Assembly (NCBI GenBank): GCA_032158295.1
Contig: CM063260.1
Coordinates: 8,350,767-8,414,766, forward strand
DNA: 64,000 bases
Origin: Pycnopodia helianthoides
Lineage: Eukaryota > Echinodermata > Asteroidea > Forcipulatida > Asteriidae
Reading direction: 5' to 3'
How positions within the stretch are numbered: position 1 is the first letter of the stretch; each line of letters opens with the position of its first letter. The notes below the pieces were generated by a model. The model made no database searches, was not told where the DNA came from, and saw only the letters and a list, made by a program, of their open reading frames with translations. Both the position numbers and the translations under genes were made by a program. Of this stretch, positions 38,451 through 48,677 are shown piece by piece.

Positions 38451-40420
38451 GCGAGAGACAAAACTTCATCGGGCAAATTATTAACGTAAACAAGAAAGAA
38501 GTGGGATCAAGTACCGAGCCTCGTGGAACCCCGGAATTGATGGAACAGGTAGGAGAAGTTTGACCCTCAAGGGCAACCTTCAACTTGCGGTTGGAAAGGA
38601 AAGCAGAGTTTATAGACAACCTTCTGCCTGACACCCATATGACTGAAGCTTGTGGAGCAGGTCAGTATATATGCCAACTTTGTCGAAGGCCTTTGAGATG
38701 TCCAATGCTACAACACGAGCCTCACCCCTGCGATCTAAGGCCCTGCTAAAATGATCAGTAATTAGGGAAAGCAGATCACCGGTTGAGCGGGAACGGCGAA
38801 ACCCCAAGCAGTCAGTCAGAAGGTCGTTGTCCTCCAGGTATCCAAGTAGCTGTTGATTAACTAAGCATTCAAAGATCTTACTTATTATGGGAAGCAGACT
38901 AATAGGACGATAATTTAGTAGCTTCAGAACGCTCACAAGCATCCTTAAAGACGGGGACCAGATGCCACTTTCCAAGATGAAGGAAACACAGAGACTGCCA
39001 AAACACATTTTAAACAGCTTGGCAAGAATGGGTGAAAGTTCTGGGGAACACATTTTCAAAACAATTGCAGGGTTCCATCAGGGCCAGTAGCCTTGGAGGC
39101 ATGCAAGGAATTAATAATCCGGTCAATCTTCTTATAGGGTGGATAAGAGGATCGGATACTACAGTGGCTGTTCGAGATGGAAAGACATGAAGTATGCCCC
39201 TCATCACTGAGTGTTGAGTTAGATGCAAAGTTGTCAGCAAAATGGTTTGCCTGATCTTGAGGACAAGTAAGAACTTCGGGTCCATGAAAGAGAGGAGGAA
39301 TGGAGGACTTGTTGCGGTTCAGTACACTATTGGCAATCCGCCAAAAGTCCCTGGAACCAAGCCGCTGTGTTGAAATAGAGCTAGCAACAGAGTTGGCATA
39401 TTGCGTCTTAGCATCCTCTAAAACTCTCTTACATCGATTTCGAGCTTCATGGAAAAGACGCTTACTATCCAAAGTTCTCGAATGATGATACTTCTTTAAA
39501 AAAAAAAAAAAATGGTTACGATGCTGCAGCACAAGGCTGGAGTGATACCAAGGTTGAGAATGTGCCTTGATCTGGTAGGTGAAGAGGGATGTAAATCTCC
39601 ATACCAAGGTTAATCCATTGGGATAACTCGTCAGCCGCCAAATCAGGACCAAGACTTAGAATCGAAGACCAAGGCACATCAGCGAGAAAATACCGAAAAC
39701 CATCCCAGTCAGCCTTTCAAAACTGAAAAACAGTACGGTGAAAATGGAATGTAGTTGTGTGAGAAGAATATGATACAGATACAGAGACAATTGAGTGATC
39801 AGAGTTACCAATTGGAGGCAAGACTTTAGCAACGCAGTAATCTGGAAACACGAAAAGAGGTCCAGCAAGTCTACCATCAGAAGCACGATCCGGAATGTGA
39901 GTAGGTGATGAAACGATCTGAGTAAGATCCTGGGAGATAGAAAAATTATGTGTTGCAATACCAGGAATGTCAATATTACGAGAATGGGTCAGCCACTCCT
40001 TGTGATGAACATTGAAGTCACCGAATACCATGACTTGAGCTGAAAGTGCTGAGAAATAGCAAAGTCAACGCCATCAGAGATAGCATCGAGCACAGCGCAG
40101 GATGATGATGAAGGTGAACGATACAGGAAAAACAGGTAGGATGTGGAATGGAGAAGCGAAAGGCGGAGTTGTCAAATTCCAAAGTGCTTTCACTGGCTAA
40201 GGGGGAGAGTTTCTTTGACATAGACACCCAGACCATGTGATAGAGGGTGGTCAAGGCGAGGAAAGATATATCCTGGTAACTTGAAAGAATCTGAAGAAAT
40301 GTTACAATTCAGTCTGCTCTCAGATAGAACTAGCAAATCAGGAGAGTTGTTGAGATTGAGAACAAAAGACTGAACAGAAGTGGAGTTGGAACGAAAGCCC
40401 CTGATTGGAAAAGGCAATTA
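38451..40420 (-). pseudogene. CR1/jockey-like LINE: endonuclease and RT up to block C
   Basis: From 40420 it reads LLVLSESRLN and YIFPRLDH..GLGVYVKE, then VFGDFNVHHKEWLT (endonuclease DxN) and GNSDHSIVSVSV (catalytic SDH). NRCKRVLEDAKTQYAN, ATGPDGT, NYRPISLLPIISKIFECLV and GFRRSRSTGDLL follow, then RVVALDISKAFDKV (RT block A) and SGVPRGSVLDP (block B). It stops at a MITE just before the YADD block. Frameshifts separate about six open pieces. Confidence 0.85.
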
Positions 40421-42945: not shown

Positions 42946-43339
42946 ATGGCGAAAGTGCTACCCCCAGCTAGCTATTTGACAGTAAAGAGAGGACCCTCAG
43001 CTCCACTTAGTGGAAGTTCATCTGAGGGTGAGAACTCTGACCTGGAAGATATACCACCATCACCCTGCAGTAGTACATCTAGTGGTCCAATATACGTACG
43101 CCCAGCTGGATTTAAACATCATGCTCAAGAAATCCAGGCATTGAAGTTGCATGTACGCACTTGCAACTCAGTTAAGTTGAAAAAAAAGATAAAGAAGAAT
43201 GCTGTCACGACTGTTCCTAAAGACAACTTGTTTTGTCAAGATGTCCAAGATTCTGGAAGGGATAAAAACAATAATAACAGCAATAGCAATAAACTATCCT
43301 CAGTTTCACAGAGCAGGGCCAAACAAAAGACGAAAAAGG
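42946..43339 (+). CDS. TEAD-motif gene exon 1
   Basis: Residues 1-131. Start Met has an upstream in-frame TGA at 42913-42915. It contains a Ser/Glu/Asp tract (SGSSSEGENSDLED, 22-35), PPSPCSSTSSGPIYVRP, a likely helix HHAQEIQALKLHV and the basic KLKKKIKK. It ends AAAAAGG|GTAAGC in phase 1. A poly-Asn/Ser stretch (108-115) is low complexity. Confidence 0.78.
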
Positions 43340-46300
43340 GTAAGCATTGTTATTGTGGTTTTTTGCAGTTATGTGGAGCATTAATTGCTCCTATCATTTC
43401 AAGGATTTACAAAAGCCCATACACTACCACATGGCCATAGTGCCACAGAAAGCATGTTGATTGTCAATAAGGGATTACAAAACAATTCCCAAATTAATTA
43501 ATTTGAATCATCAAATGTGTCGCAAAGAAAGCCTTTCCCTTTATGCAATCCCATATGGTCCAATGCTAAAGTAAAGATAAACAATCAAAATTTGCAAAAA
43601 TAAAAAATTATATAGAATACTGAATACTTTTGAGTTCGCATTTCTTTTCAATTTAACAATGACAATTAACATAAAGAAAACAGCAACCTTTCCCCTCTTT
43701 CCACTGAAGAACCTTTAGGCGCTCGAGTGAGATTTGAACACGAACAAGATTTCTGGTCCCAGTGTAGTCAAATTAATTAGTAAACACAGTACATGTACAT
43801 TACTTTTGGCAGGTTTTCAGCAATGAACATGACCTCGATTATTTTAATTTGTAAAAAAAAAAATTGCACAGAGTAGGGGCTACACGGATTTGACTGAATT
43901 CAAATTTTAATAAGCTTTGCATTTGGCATTATGTCAATGTATGTGCCATACTTCATACTCATTTAATTAGCACTAAAAACGTTTAGTTTAGATTATACCA
44001 CTGCTCTATGAATGAATTAAACTACTGAAACCTGTCATTAGGGCTTGAAGTAAACACTGGACCACTAGCCAGAGACCTTCAATTTTTGCATTGGGCCTAA
44101 TTAACCCAACAGCTGAACATCATTATCATTTGACTACCCAGTACATGTACATAAATTTTGACAAACCTTGTGATGCTGTGATCATAGACTGAAATACAGG
44201 ATTTGGTACATGTAACATTGATCACATCAACAACGATTAGAATTGTCAGTAGTTATCTGGGCTAGACAATTAATGATGGTGTTTGAAGTAAGTATTTTTG
44301 ACTAGCCTACCCTGTTGCAAGTAATAATCAAAGATGGCCTGTATGCGTTCTTGACTAGTGTGTGTGTTTGCATGGGGGTTTATAGTAATATACAATCCAG
44401 CCCTGTATTGTATGCAGTTTGAGAAAACGAATGCACATCTCACGTTTTATTGATGTGTAGTTTTTATAAAGCTGTGTGGTTTTTTTATCATGGAATGGAG
44501 GAACAAAACCCATATTTCATTGCCATGATAGAGATCTGTCCTAATATACTGTACACCAAGCGTACATCCATGTAATGAAGCAGAAACACAATTGTGATGC
44601 TATAGCAACTGTTGCTATGCAACCTTCTTTCATGTATAAAATAGGTTTCTTGTGATGATGGTGAACGTTATTAAGAATATGATTAGCAGGCATTGCTAAA
44701 TTACATGTTTGAGATGAAAACAATAACAAGTGGTATTGTATTTCATTGGTTCTTGAACATCTAACTTGGTTGCTTAGTAACAGTAATGTCATTGTGCCAA
44801 AAGTGGTTGAAACAGTTTTTTGTTTCCACAAAGTGACGGATTGTAGCCTTGTGCATGTGTTTACTGTATATTGCACGTTGTGTTTTAGTTCTTACAAAAT
44901 GGCCGAATCACACCACACAGAGCAAAATACAAAATACAGCTGTATCCAGTATGTCACGAAGTGACACAATTCCCTATTAGTACATTACTAATATACACAT
45001 GGAATTTAATTGTCACCTTGTGAAAACCGTGTATATGGATTTTTTTTTGCGTTTTCAACAAGTAATATTTTTGGTTTATAACTAAATATTACTCATTGAT
45101 AGTTGTTTATACCCTGAACAAACAGTTTTGTGTCCTTTGAGATTTCAGCTTTCCAACAATGTAAACAATTTAAATTGTTAAGTCAACGTCTACATGTATC
45201 TGTAAAATCTGAAAACGTGGTTTAACTCCTTGTGTGCATGGTCTAATTATTTGACACTTTGTAAAAACTGTGATGATGTGTTCATTTTAATGATACAGCA
45301 ATTTTCAATCTGAAAGCTCACTGACACTGACTATGTACGTAAACGAAATTTGTCTGAAATAGTCAAAGTTGATAAAAAAAACCAGTTGAATATCTTTTGT
45401 TCTTATTTTGATTGCTGCAATTAATTAAAGAGGTGCAGAATTGTGAACATTTTTACATGTATGTGGACATTGTATTTAAATATACAAATATTGAATGCAT
45501 GTGAGTGCATTGTCACATAATATACATGAAGTGTAATCTGGACTATATTCTATTTCACACAGCCAATGGAAATGGCAGATTGCAACAATAGTCTGCGAGT
45601 CTGCGACAATGCACAAACAAAATGTGTCCAATATTTATTTTATACTCAACACACATGTCCTTGTCAGTTGATTTTTTTCACAATAAACACAGAATAGACA
45701 CAAAGAAACTCGTCAATTTAGTTTTGACATTTTTGAGTTATAAATCAATTGTACATGTAGGCCTACGTGTTCCACTTTAACAATCGGTGGTTATACTGAG
45801 CAGAACGACCTGATCCTCTTCATGTAAATTATGATTGTTAAAAACTTGCCCTATTAGTGTTGTCTGTTGACAGTCACAGAAAGTCATGATCTTAACCAAA
45901 GTGCCCTTCCTCATGCTTCATAACATACCGTATTGATGTTGACTGCCCTGTGTTCTTGCCCCCTCATGATCTACATGCTAAGGTTAGGGTTAGGGCTAGG
46001 AAAATGGTTAGGGCTTGGGTTAAGGTTAGGGCTTGGGTTAGTGTTAGCATGGTTAGGGTTAGAGTTAGGGTTAGGTGTAGGTTTGTAAACTTTTGAGATC
46101 TTTATTCAGATACAGTACATGTTTTAATGGTTAGGTTTGCTTTGCAAGAAGAAATCATTCTGTCACAGTACATGTTTACCACTGTGTTTGATATTTGTGT
46201 GATTAAGCTCTTAATTCCCATATTTGATTGCTTATTTTGTATTCAGATCCATTACCTATGAAACTACGAGCTTTACCACAATCCTTTTGGCAACAGCCAA

Positions 46301-48677
46301 ATACAGTCAACACAGCACCACCTGGAGCAATGTATACTGTGTTACCACCCGTCTCTAAAACAGAGCAACCATGTATTGCTGAAATCACAGGTTAGTTTAG
46401 GGTTTTTATTCTCAAATTGTAATGGTTTAAATGATCAAGACTTGTAAATCACTGTAATTGGATCACATCTCACAAAGATTTATACTAATAATGGATTATT
46501 GTAATGATAGTGAACGTTATTAAGAATATGATTAGCAGGCATTGCTAAAATACATGTTAATGAGATGAAAACAACAATTGGTATTGTTTTTAATTTGTTA
46601 GTTTTTTGTTGTTGTTTTTTTTTACTTAAAGAGAATGTGGATTTTGAGAGTTTAGAAAAATCCTGATGCATGCTGATCACTGTGTTGCAAATGGCAAAGA
46701 ATGCTTGACTTTGGCTGTAAAAAGTTGCTCAAAATGTTTGTTGTTATCTTCAAAGTGTTTGTCGCAAAGGTAATGAATTCTAGAAATTAAGTTGATCAGT
46801 TTTGTTTTTCAATTGGTAAACAGAAGACAATAATATGCAAAGTAGCAGGAAGGTACATGTCATGTACATTGTTATTATGAACAGTAGAGTGAAATCCATG
46901 TGACCTCATTAACACTAAGGACATGCAATAATAGCATTCAGGTTGAAATAACTAAATCATCTTTCTTCAAAAAGATAATGAATTTGTCTAACAATTTTAT
47001 TGTATCGTCAATTTTACTTTGATCCACAAGATGTACGGCCAGTTACACCACCATCAGACCAAGAGGGAAAGCAAACCAAATCAGTGGTGAAATGTGAATG
47101 GTTAGAGAGACCTCCAAAAACACTTTCACAATGTGATAGGCAAGATAATAGCAGATCAGTTGAGACATTACAAGATACATCCAGAGAGGGAGAAACTGAC
47201 ACTCTGGTAAGGGAACGTATCAAATCCAAGCAACTTAAACCTGCAGCTAGAAGGATACTAAGAGTATCGGCAACAAGTTCCAACCTTCTTGCTAAATTAT
47301 TTGATGGAATAGACAAGGAAAAGAAAAGCAATGTAAACTCATCAATCAAAAGAGGAAGGTAAGCTGATGTGAAGAGGTCCAAGTTTTAGAATGATAATAG
47401 CAGTCAGACAATAGTCTAGTGGGTCAAAAAGTGTTTTCTTCTCTGTGCTTTGTTTCTGACATTTTATTGTATTGTGTTAACAACCTCTTTTTTGTGTGAT
47501 TGTAGTTGGGAAAACCCACACACTTGTCAAAAGTTGTGACCAACATGACGAATTATGTCTGAACCCCGCTTGAACTTTAGCACTTTCTTAAATGTCAACA
47601 TGTTTAATGGATATTATGTCGTCAAACATTTGACACAAAAAATAGATAATAGTAGGAGTGATTTGATAAAACTCTAAAAAGGAGAGAATTATCACAATAA
47701 TCTTTAGTTCCTTTGCAATGAAGTAATAAAATAAAATAGTCAGTCAAGCTGTGCACTTATCCACGTAGAACACATTTCTTTGAAAATTGATAGACTTTTT
47801 GCATTGACGTAATCACACCGCCAAAATAAGAATTAGAAATGATTTACACATTTAATTTAAACAAAGTTCTGTACATTCAGTTACAATTTTATTTTAGGTT
47901 TTACCGATCCTTGCCCCTTATCCAGAATATCTTTTAAGGGTTTAAAATGATTTTTTTCTCTTTAAAATAACCAATTATATACTGATTTATTTATTTCAGA
48001 AAGGTAGGTAGCCAACAAGTTTTAACCATAAAACTTGTTGGCTACCAACCTTTCTGAAATAAATAAATAAGTATATAATTGGTTATTTTGAAGAAAAAAA
48101 AATCATTTTAAATCCTTAAATTCTTAAAATTTGAAGTTGTGCCGGTCCTTTCTCTAATTTTGCGCGCTTTTGAGGTTTCAACATTTTTGCTAAAGTTGGA
48201 ACCAAAGGAAACAGTACGGGGCGGAACGACAGAACTTGTTGGCTACCTGATTAAAAAAATGTTAGTGACCAACTTGACGTCGTGTGTGTGGGTGCGTGCG
48301 TTTGTGTCGATGCACAAAATGTACACTAAGACTAAATGTACAAATGTCAGGTACATGTAGGTTTGTCACCTACTTTGGAAATTGTCGGAGTATTGATGAA
48401 TTAAAGTTACAACTGTTTGTTTTTTAACAGACCAAAGAGAGACTGTTCTCAGTCGCATCACAAGCATGTGATTGGTGAAGATCCATATATGATAGATGCT
48501 GTTGCAGATGGGCTCCTACCGCTACTGAGTATTGAATCACATCGACAGAGTGTTGGACCTTCTTCACATCTATCAGTTGTAGCCGTGAAAGATGGTGATA
48601 AAACACTTACTTTACCATCGTTAAGTATTGAACAGAACTATCCAGCCATGTTGTCAGAGCTTGTCAAAGCATTATGA
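42946..48677 (+). CDS. Putative TEAD-binding protein with YAP/FAM181-like omega-loop (4 exons)
   Basis: Four exons (42946-43339, 46247-46390, 47031-47358, 48431-48677) join in phase to 370 residues. They are preceded by an in-frame stop (42913) and followed by AATAAA at 48881. Residues 135-146 read PMKLRALPQSFW. This matches the omega-loop of YAP/TAZ and FAM181A/B: Met, Leu, Arg, Leu-Pro, Ser-Phe and an aromatic at the second Phe position (Trp as in FAM181A). Residues 266-270, LAKLF, form an LxxLF helix like the other YAP contact. There are no WW domains. A basic patch at 77-84 suggests nuclear entry, and residues 22-35 form an acidic Ser tract. The likely role is a transcription cofactor of TEAD/Scalloped. 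Orthology to FAM181 is uncertain, because its N-terminal block was not recognised. Confidence 0.75.
44651..44750 (+). repeat. Dispersed repeat R2, copy 1
   Basis: The words GAACGTTATTAAGAATATGA and TTAGCAGGCATTGCTAAA recur at 46500-46595 in the same orientation with few changes. The two copies lie in introns 1 and 2 of the same gene. Confidence 0.85.
45979..46080 (+). repeat. Degenerate telomere-like (TTAGGG)n tract
   Basis: About ten TTAGGG or one-off variants (TTAGGGCTTGGG, TTAAGG) lie over 100 bases, about 170 bases upstream of the omega-loop exon. The variants show it is an old interstitial array, not a chromosome end. Confidence 0.8.
46247..46390 (+). CDS. TEAD-motif gene exon 2 (omega-loop exon)
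   Basis: The acceptor TTTTGTATTCAG leads into DPLPMKLRALPQSFW and a Pro-rich tail QQPNTV..PPGAMYTVLPP. It ends ATCACAG|GTTAGT in phase 1. The exon has no internal Met-to-stop frame on this strand, so it is easily missed. The conserved positions of the motif (Met136, Leu138, Arg139, Leu141, Pro142, Ser144, Phe145, Trp146) are all filled. Confidence 0.8.
46500..46595 (+). repeat. Dispersed repeat R2, copy 2
   Basis: Near-identical to 44651-44750 (GTGAACGTTATTAAGAATAT, ATGATTAGCAGGCATTGCTA). It lies in intron 2, about 110 bases after exon 2. Confidence 0.85.
47031..47358 (+). CDS. TEAD-motif gene exon 3 (LxxLF helix)
   Basis: It follows GATCCACAAG. Residues 180-289 are mostly charged and Ser/Thr-rich. 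The segment PAARRILRVSATSSNLLAKL then FDGIDKEKK (250-278) looks helical. It contains LxxLF at 266-270, similar in pattern to the alpha-1 TEAD contact of YAP (LEALF). It ends GGAAG|GTAAGC in phase 2. Confidence 0.78.
47938..48117. mobile_element. Foldback of about 90-base arms inside intron 3
   Basis: The arms share TTTAAAATGATTTTTTT, AATAACCAATTATATAC and TTTATTTATTTCAGAAAGGT, then GGTAGCCAACAAGTTTTA at the centre (about 48028). The word ACTTGTTGGCTACC appears a third time at about 48234. Weaker inverted similarity extends to about 47500 and 48300 (CCACACAC, GTGACCAAC). It could be a larger foldback of which this is the core. Confidence 0.8.
48431..48677 (+). CDS. TEAD-motif gene exon 4 and stop
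   Basis: The acceptor TTTTTTAACAG completes Arg289 and continues PKRDCSQSHHKHVIGEDPYM. A probable helix IDAVADGLLPLL follows. It ends with LSELVKAL and TGA at 48675-48677. AATAAA at 48881-48886 is a likely poly(A) signal. Confidence 0.78.

What the first reader, a model, noticed from the sequence alone, without database searches (positions are those of the whole stretch)
42946..48677. New-looking TEAD-binding cofactor: YAP-type omega-loop and LxxLF helix in reversed order, no WW domain
Exon 2 encodes PMKLRALPQSFW. At every key position (Met, Leu, Arg, Leu-Pro, Ser, Phe, aromatic) this equals the omega-loop by which YAP/TAZ and FAM181A/B grip TEAD factors. Exon 3 adds LAKLF (266-270), fitting the LxxLF helix that is YAP's second contact. 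In YAP the helix comes before the loop; here it comes about 120 residues after. The rest (acidic Ser tract, basic patch, conserved-looking C terminus IDAVADGLLPLL) matches nothing I recognise. It may be an invertebrate FAM181 relative or an undescribed Hippo-pathway output factor.
Basis: partly seen in the sequence, partly recalled or inferred. Interest (0 to 1): 0.85.

Follow-up and report, generated by a model that had tools for sequence, protein, structure and literature searches.

The report
Conserved invertebrate TEAD-binding cofactor candidate
A sea-star gene encodes an uncharacterised protein, conserved across many invertebrate phyla, that carries the peptide loop by which growth-control proteins such as YAP grip TEAD transcription factors, followed (in reversed order) by a YAP-like helix motif, so it is probably an unstudied regulator of the Hippo growth pathway.

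Summary
The gene is real: four GT-AG exons (42946-48677, +) encode 370 aa, 93% identical over full length to an uncharacterised Asterias amurensis protein. Its omega-loop passes Pfam's TEADIR3 cut-off; the family profile's only PDB matches at E<=10 (11 of 177,635 distinct sequences) are YAP and FAM181A chains. Named homologues span nine phyla, no vertebrate among them. The loop pattern is in 103 of 114 retrieved sequences; 95 of those 103 have LxxLF after it, 0 of 103 before it. So the reversed order is an ancient family trait. It is not a FAM181A orthologue: the FAM181A N-terminal signature is in 120 of 120 listed FAM181A-type hits and 0 of 114 here; YAP and VGLL hallmarks are missing, and PERCC1's described order does not fit. 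Weak point: the helix profile finds nothing in PDB and matches YAP's helix only at P 0.0058, probability 6%. Best reading: an undescribed bilaterian TEAD/Scalloped cofactor anchored by the omega-loop; the helix as second TEAD contact is about even odds. TEAD binding was not tested.

The parts
42946..43339 (+). exon 1: start Met, KRGPS near the N terminus, acidic Ser tract, SGPIYVRPAGFKHH motif, basic patch
   Evidence: conserved in A2
43081..43131 (+). SGPIYVRPAGFKHHAQE motif (residues 46-62)
   Evidence: S[GE]P.Y.R pattern in 48 of 57 aligned homologues
46247..46390 (+). exon 2: carries the omega-loop
46255..46290 (+). omega-loop PMKLRALPQSFW (residues 135-146), predicted TEAD interface 3
   Evidence: Pfam TEADIR3 E 3e-6; profile hits in PDB only YAP and FAM181A chains; invariant residues
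47031..47358 (+). exon 3: RPVTPP motif, variable linker, LxxLF helix, first part of RGRP
47036..47053 (+). RPVTPP motif (residues 182-187), possible phospho-site (inference)
   Evidence: R[PS].[TS]P[PT] in 48 of 57
47288..47302 (+). LAKLF (residues 266-270), LxxLF helix, candidate TEAD interface 2
   Evidence: LF invariant in 57 of 57; helix in AlphaFold models of two homologues; no PDB profile match
47351..47358 (+). RGRP AT-hook-like core, first part (continues in exon 4, 48431-48434)
   Evidence: RGRP after the helix in 51 of 57; Pfam AT_hook only 1 of 57 at E 0.74
48431..48677 (+). exon 4: DPYMIDAVADGLLPLL motif and C-terminal module, stop codon
48555..48674 (+). C-terminal conserved module, predicted beta-hairpin plus helix ending LSELVKAL
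   Evidence: LSELV-type end in 57 of 57; AlphaFold pLDDT 65-89 by 10-residue block over this part in two homologues; no PDB profile match

Best explanation
The gene encodes a mostly disordered, probably nuclear cofactor of TEAD/Scalloped. It docks by its omega-loop (residues 135-146) in the interface-3 pocket that YAP, FAM181A and Vestigial also use. Shown here: the gene model, the loop's match to TEAD-binding loops, deep conservation, and the order loop - LxxLF helix - RGRP - C-terminal module. Inferred: the loop binds TEAD; the LxxLF helix, on a flexible linker (34-206 residues in the family), sits in the interface-2 groove or recruits another partner; basic stretches and RGRP hold the complex on AT-rich DNA; so the protein competes with Yorkie/YAP for TEAD and changes its output. 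Without WW domains and with no conserved LATS site it should not be under direct Hippo-kinase control as YAP is.
For: Pfam TEADIR3 above its cut-off, and at E<=1 in 57 of 57 homologues. In the PDB profile search 11 of 11 hits at E<=10 are TEAD-ligand chains, ten YAP and one FAM181A. hhalign to FAM181A E 3.3e-6 and to recalled YAP/TAZ/Yki segments E 4.6e-6, both at the loop. Positions that I align with YAP Met86, Leu91, Phe95 (named as the hydrophobic core in passages of PMC7566471), Arg89 and Ser94 are invariant; the residue at YAP Phe96 is Trp in 55 of 57, as in Vg Trp334. Order loop-helix-RGRP-LSELV in 51 of 57. Helix predicted at LxxLF in both modelled homologues. Echinoderms have TEAD (PMC13204635 passages) and a separate Yorkie/YAP (PMC3522738 passages).
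Against: No binding, expression or localisation data. The helix profile has 0 PDB hits at E<=10, hhalign gives only 6.4% probability to YAP's helix, and the HMMER match to recalled YAP/TAZ/Yki covers just the LFxxV part, not the whole LxxLF. AlphaFold models are of low confidence (mean pLDDT 51.4 and 56.4, pTM about 0.2) and are of homologues, not of the window protein. The complex with TEAD was not modelled.
Confidence: 0.72

Rival explanations
1. Omega-loop-only cofactor (a rival on the helix only, so its odds overlap with the main reading): TEAD is bound by the loop alone and the LxxLF helix is an activation or corepressor-binding helix for another partner.
For: PMC10146773 passages say FAM181A binds TEAD only at interface 3. 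The LxxLF profile finds no PDB chain, nothing in FAM181A and is weak against YAP. The consensus TDLLFKLF also looks like a short acidic-hydrophobic activation helix (recalled p53-type motifs, no call).
Against: The helix aligns in register with YAP's at P 0.0058; recalled YAP, TAZ and Yki segments are reached by only 9, 3 and 3 of 2000 residue shuffles. Per the same passages YAP, TAZ and VGLL2 use the loop together with interface 2.
Confidence: 0.4
2. It is a diverged invertebrate orthologue of FAM181 (or of PERCC1).
For: Same Pfam family; loop similarity to FAM181A E 3.3e-6. PERCC1 and FAM181 homologues are reported in invertebrates (PMC9710580). An annelid gene called FAM181B (PMC10380512 passages) may be an automatic name for this family or a true FAM181.
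Against: RKYLQKQ is in 120 of 120 listed FAM181A-type hits and RKYLQ/HRKYL in 0 of 114 here. PERCC1 is described with consecutive interfaces 2 and 3 and as absent from hexapods; here 0 of 103 have LxxLF anywhere before the loop and named hexapods have the gene. PERCC1, FAM181B and invertebrate FAM181 sequences were not in hand.
Confidence: 0.1
3. The loop-like peptide is convergent and binds something other than TEAD; the protein is a chromatin factor unrelated to Hippo.
For: The match is short, and the rest of the protein matches no known TEAD cofactor.
Against: The TEAD-contact positions are invariant while neighbouring ones vary; the only PDB matches of the profile are TEAD ligands.
Confidence: 0.1

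Closest known systems
FAM181A/FAM181B
   Same: Omega-loop with Trp at the YAP Phe96 position; closest PDB chain to the loop (6l9f_C, E 0.0057)
   Different: Of 120 listed FAM181A-type hits 120 have RKYLQKQ, 2 LxxLF, 2 RGRP and 0 the LSELV-type end. Papers disagree on whether FAM181 has interface 2: yes in PMC9710580, no in PMC10146773. FAM181B not compared
YAP/TAZ/Yorkie
   Same: Omega-loop contact residues; an LxxLF motif
   Different: YAP order is strand-helix-loop (PMC7566471 passages); here loop then helix; no WW domain; LATS pattern HxRxx[ST] in 2 of 57 (8% of shuffles) and a loose form in 11 of 57, neither in the window protein
PERCC1
   Same: Described as having interfaces 2 and 3, with invertebrate homologues (PMC9710580)
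   Different: Interfaces 2 and 3 consecutive in PERCC1; reported absent from hexapods. Sequences not compared here
Vestigial/VGLL2
   Same: Omega-loop; Trp at the aromatic position in Vg
   Different: TONDU VxxHF motif in 0 of 57

Membership tests
Pfam PF15238 TEADIR3 (omega-loop) | Score above the curated cut-off | tested here: met
   27.7 bits against 26 for the window protein
FAM181 | Omega-loop of FAM181 type | tested here: met
   hhalign E 3.3e-6, probability 88%, loop neighbourhood only
FAM181 | Conserved N-terminal region (RKYLQKQ) | tested here: not met
   RKYLQ/HRKYL in 0 of 114; RKYLQKQ in 120 of 120 listed FAM181A-type hits
YAP/TAZ | WW domain | tested here: not met
   Pfam scans at E up to 10 and up to 1; rough WW spacing pattern in 0 of 57
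YAP/TAZ | Interface-2 LxxLF helix before the loop | tested here: not met
   0 of 103 loop-bearing sequences have LxxLF anywhere upstream; a relaxed pattern within 120 residues occurs in 3 of 103, different each time
YAP/TAZ | LxxLF helix homologous to interface 2, any order | tested here: inconclusive
   No PDB hit; hhalign P 0.0058, probability 6.4%
YAP/TAZ | LATS phosphorylation sites HxRxx[ST] | tested here: not met
   2 of 57, against 237 of 2850 shuffles; loose pattern 11 of 57; none in the window protein
PERCC1 | Consecutive interfaces 2 and 3 in that order | tested here: not met
   against the description in PMC9710580
PERCC1 | Conserved PERCC1 N- and C-terminal regions | not tested
   no PERCC1 sequence was in hand
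Vestigial/VGLL | TONDU motif VxxHF | tested here: not met
   0 of 57
TEAD cofactor (works like) | Direct TEAD binding | not testable with these tools
   needs a binding assay or a complex model
AT-hook proteins | Pfam AT_hook match | tested here: inconclusive
   1 of 57 at E 0.74, although RGRP follows the helix in 51 of 57

The most novel reading that the evidence does not exclude
A further ancient class of TEAD cofactor, spread through protostomes and invertebrate deuterostomes and apparently lost in vertebrates and flies, that wraps TEAD with YAP's two main contacts in permuted order (interface 3, then interface 2) and also touches DNA itself through an AT-hook, acting as a Hippo-kinase-independent competitor of Yorkie/YAP.
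Probability: 0.3. Interest if true: 0.85.

Novelty: new variant of a known kind. Interest (0 to 1): 0.62.

Why it matters
TEAD output is mostly explained by YAP/TAZ and Vestigial/VGLL. A conserved cofactor missing from the usual models would have been overlooked in growth, regeneration and larval development of many invertebrates, and a permuted order of contacts would show that TEAD ligands are assembled from interchangeable short motifs. The prediction is testable with one peptide.

Full report
Gene. Four exons on the + strand (42946-43339, 46247-46390, 47031-47358, 48431-48677) have GT-AG borders and give a 370-aa ORF. A protein search of about 5.8 billion sequences found 96 proteins at E<=10; the best is an uncharacterised Asterias amurensis protein, 93% identical over its whole length, so the window comes from that genus or a close relative (inference). 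This homologue, a database prediction, supports the splice joins; no transcript was seen.

Spread. By the organism names listed and my knowledge of their phyla, named hits come from Echinodermata, Hemichordata, Chordata (amphioxus), Mollusca, Brachiopoda, Annelida, Nemertea, Bryozoa and Arthropoda (horseshoe crab, ticks, scorpion, millipede, crustaceans, mayflies, cockroaches, termite, stick insects, locusts, ground beetle). This is absence from two word-based searches (only the 7988 candidates sharing most words were scored), not proof of loss. Where a source gives a name it is mostly 'uncharacterized', 'hypothetical' or 'unnamed'; a few names look automatic and wrong (mucin-2-like, phg2-like). 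In one search, 82 of 96 hits carry a precomputed PF15238 tag.

The loop. Pfam gives a single match, TEADIR3, E 3e-6, above its cut-off; 57 of 57 aligned homologues match it at E<=1. The 25-aa loop finds FAM181A (6l9f_C, E 0.0057) and then nine YAP sequences, E 0.13 to 0.92. With the whole-family profile all 11 PDB matches at E<=10 are TEAD ligands: ten YAP sequences (one, 4re1_C, is called 'Yorkie homolog', a name also used for human YAP1, recalled) and FAM181A; best E 0.00056. Over 57 sequences P, M, R, L, P, Q, S, F and the closing P are invariant. By my alignment with YAP these include Met86, Arg89, Leu91, Ser94 and Phe95. Passages of PMC7566471 name Met86, Leu91 and Phe95 as the hydrophobic core and give the salt bridge and hydrogen bond of the matching Arg and Ser of Vestigial; PMC9710580 says Ser94 is required for TEAD binding. 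The loop pattern is in 103 of 114 sequences. Of the other 11, P0035 and P0103 have Phe for Leu, P0096 has Tyr for Phe, P0040 and P0065 start inside the loop, and P0085, P0086, P0089, P0091, P0106 and P0114 lack it.

The order. Of the 103, 95 have a Pro-free LxxLF downstream (gap 34-206 residues, median 65) and none has LxxLF anywhere upstream. Of the eight without it, P0030 and P0048 have FxxLF and P0082 IxxLF; P0037, P0090, P0093, P0111 and P0112 end in other sequence and look truncated. With a relaxed pattern 57 of 57 in A2 have it, and 51 of 57 show the full order loop, helix, RGRP, LSELV-type end; the other six (P0015-P0018, P0022, P0057) lack RGRP. In shuffles 6% of proteins contain LxxLF (173 of 2850), so one motif in one protein would mean little; conservation across phyla is what counts, and homologues are not independent. 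AlphaFold puts a helix there in both homologues modelled (residues 258-267 of P0001, 191-197 of P0031), in otherwise mostly disordered chains.

Is the helix interface 2? The direct tests are weak. Its profile finds no PDB chain at E<=10 although YAP chains are in that set, and nothing in FAM181A. Against recalled YAP/TAZ/Yki segments hhalign finds the right register but only P 0.0058 and probability 6.4%; 9, 3 and 3 of 2000 residue shuffles score as high, and the HMMER alignment spans just LFxxV. I put about 50% on it. The rival is a helix for another partner, with TEAD held by the loop alone, as PMC10146773 reports for FAM181A (passages). PMC9710580 instead ascribes interfaces 2 and 3 to FAM181, so the literature is split on that comparison.

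Not FAM181A. hhalign against 20 vertebrate FAM181A proteins aligns 45 columns around the loop (E 3.3e-6) and nothing else. RKYLQKQ is in 120 of 120 listed FAM181A-type hits; RKYLQ/HRKYL is in 0 of 114 here. Those 120 are the best of 409 for a FAM181A query; FAM181B and invertebrate FAM181 were not compared. PERCC1 (PMC9710580; parts 1 and 2 of 3 read, supplement not seen) is described with consecutive interfaces 2 and 3, and as absent from hexapods; that does not fit, but no PERCC1 sequence could be compared.

Other conserved parts. S[GE]P.Y.R (48 of 57), R[PS].[TS]P[PT] (48 of 57) and an LSELV-type end (57 of 57), RGRP (51 of 57). The C terminus is predicted as a beta-hairpin plus helix, pLDDT 65-89 by block, without PDB relatives by profile; whole-model fold searches found nothing significant.

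Partners. TEAD is described in the sea cucumber Apostichopus and aligned there with Acanthaster and Patiria (PMC13204635 passages); an echinoderm Yorkie/YAP and TEAD are in the trees of PMC3522738 (passages). So this protein is an addition to YAP, not its replacement (inference). An annelid gene labelled FAM181B is among the top ten hub genes of a module tied to larval cilia in Urechis (PMC10380512 passages); whether it is this family is unknown.

Verdict. The TEAD link through the loop is likely (about 0.85), the two-contact permuted mode is open (about 0.5), and function in vivo is untested.

Noticed in passing
45982-46075: Degenerate telomere-like GGTTAG repeats inside intron 1.
   Followed up: no
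47933-48120: A 92-nt inverted repeat, 95% complementary with 4 nt between the arms, inside intron 3; perhaps a MITE-type or fold-back element.
   Followed up: no
44637-44709 and 46486-46558: A 73-nt direct repeat, 89% identical, in introns 1 and 2.
   Followed up: no
38610-40064 (-): Pieces of a non-LTR-type retrotransposon upstream of the gene: reverse transcriptase match (PF00078, E 3.6e-9) and a sub-cut-off endonuclease match (PF14529, E 0.00038).
   Followed up: partly
P0106 (Sinanodonta woodiana): A predicted homologue keeps both ends of the protein but lacks the loop and the helix, perhaps an exon-skipping model.
   Followed up: no
48555-48674: A conserved C-terminal module (predicted beta-hairpin plus helix) with no Pfam match in the family scan and no PDB profile match; might deserve its own domain entry.
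   Followed up: partly
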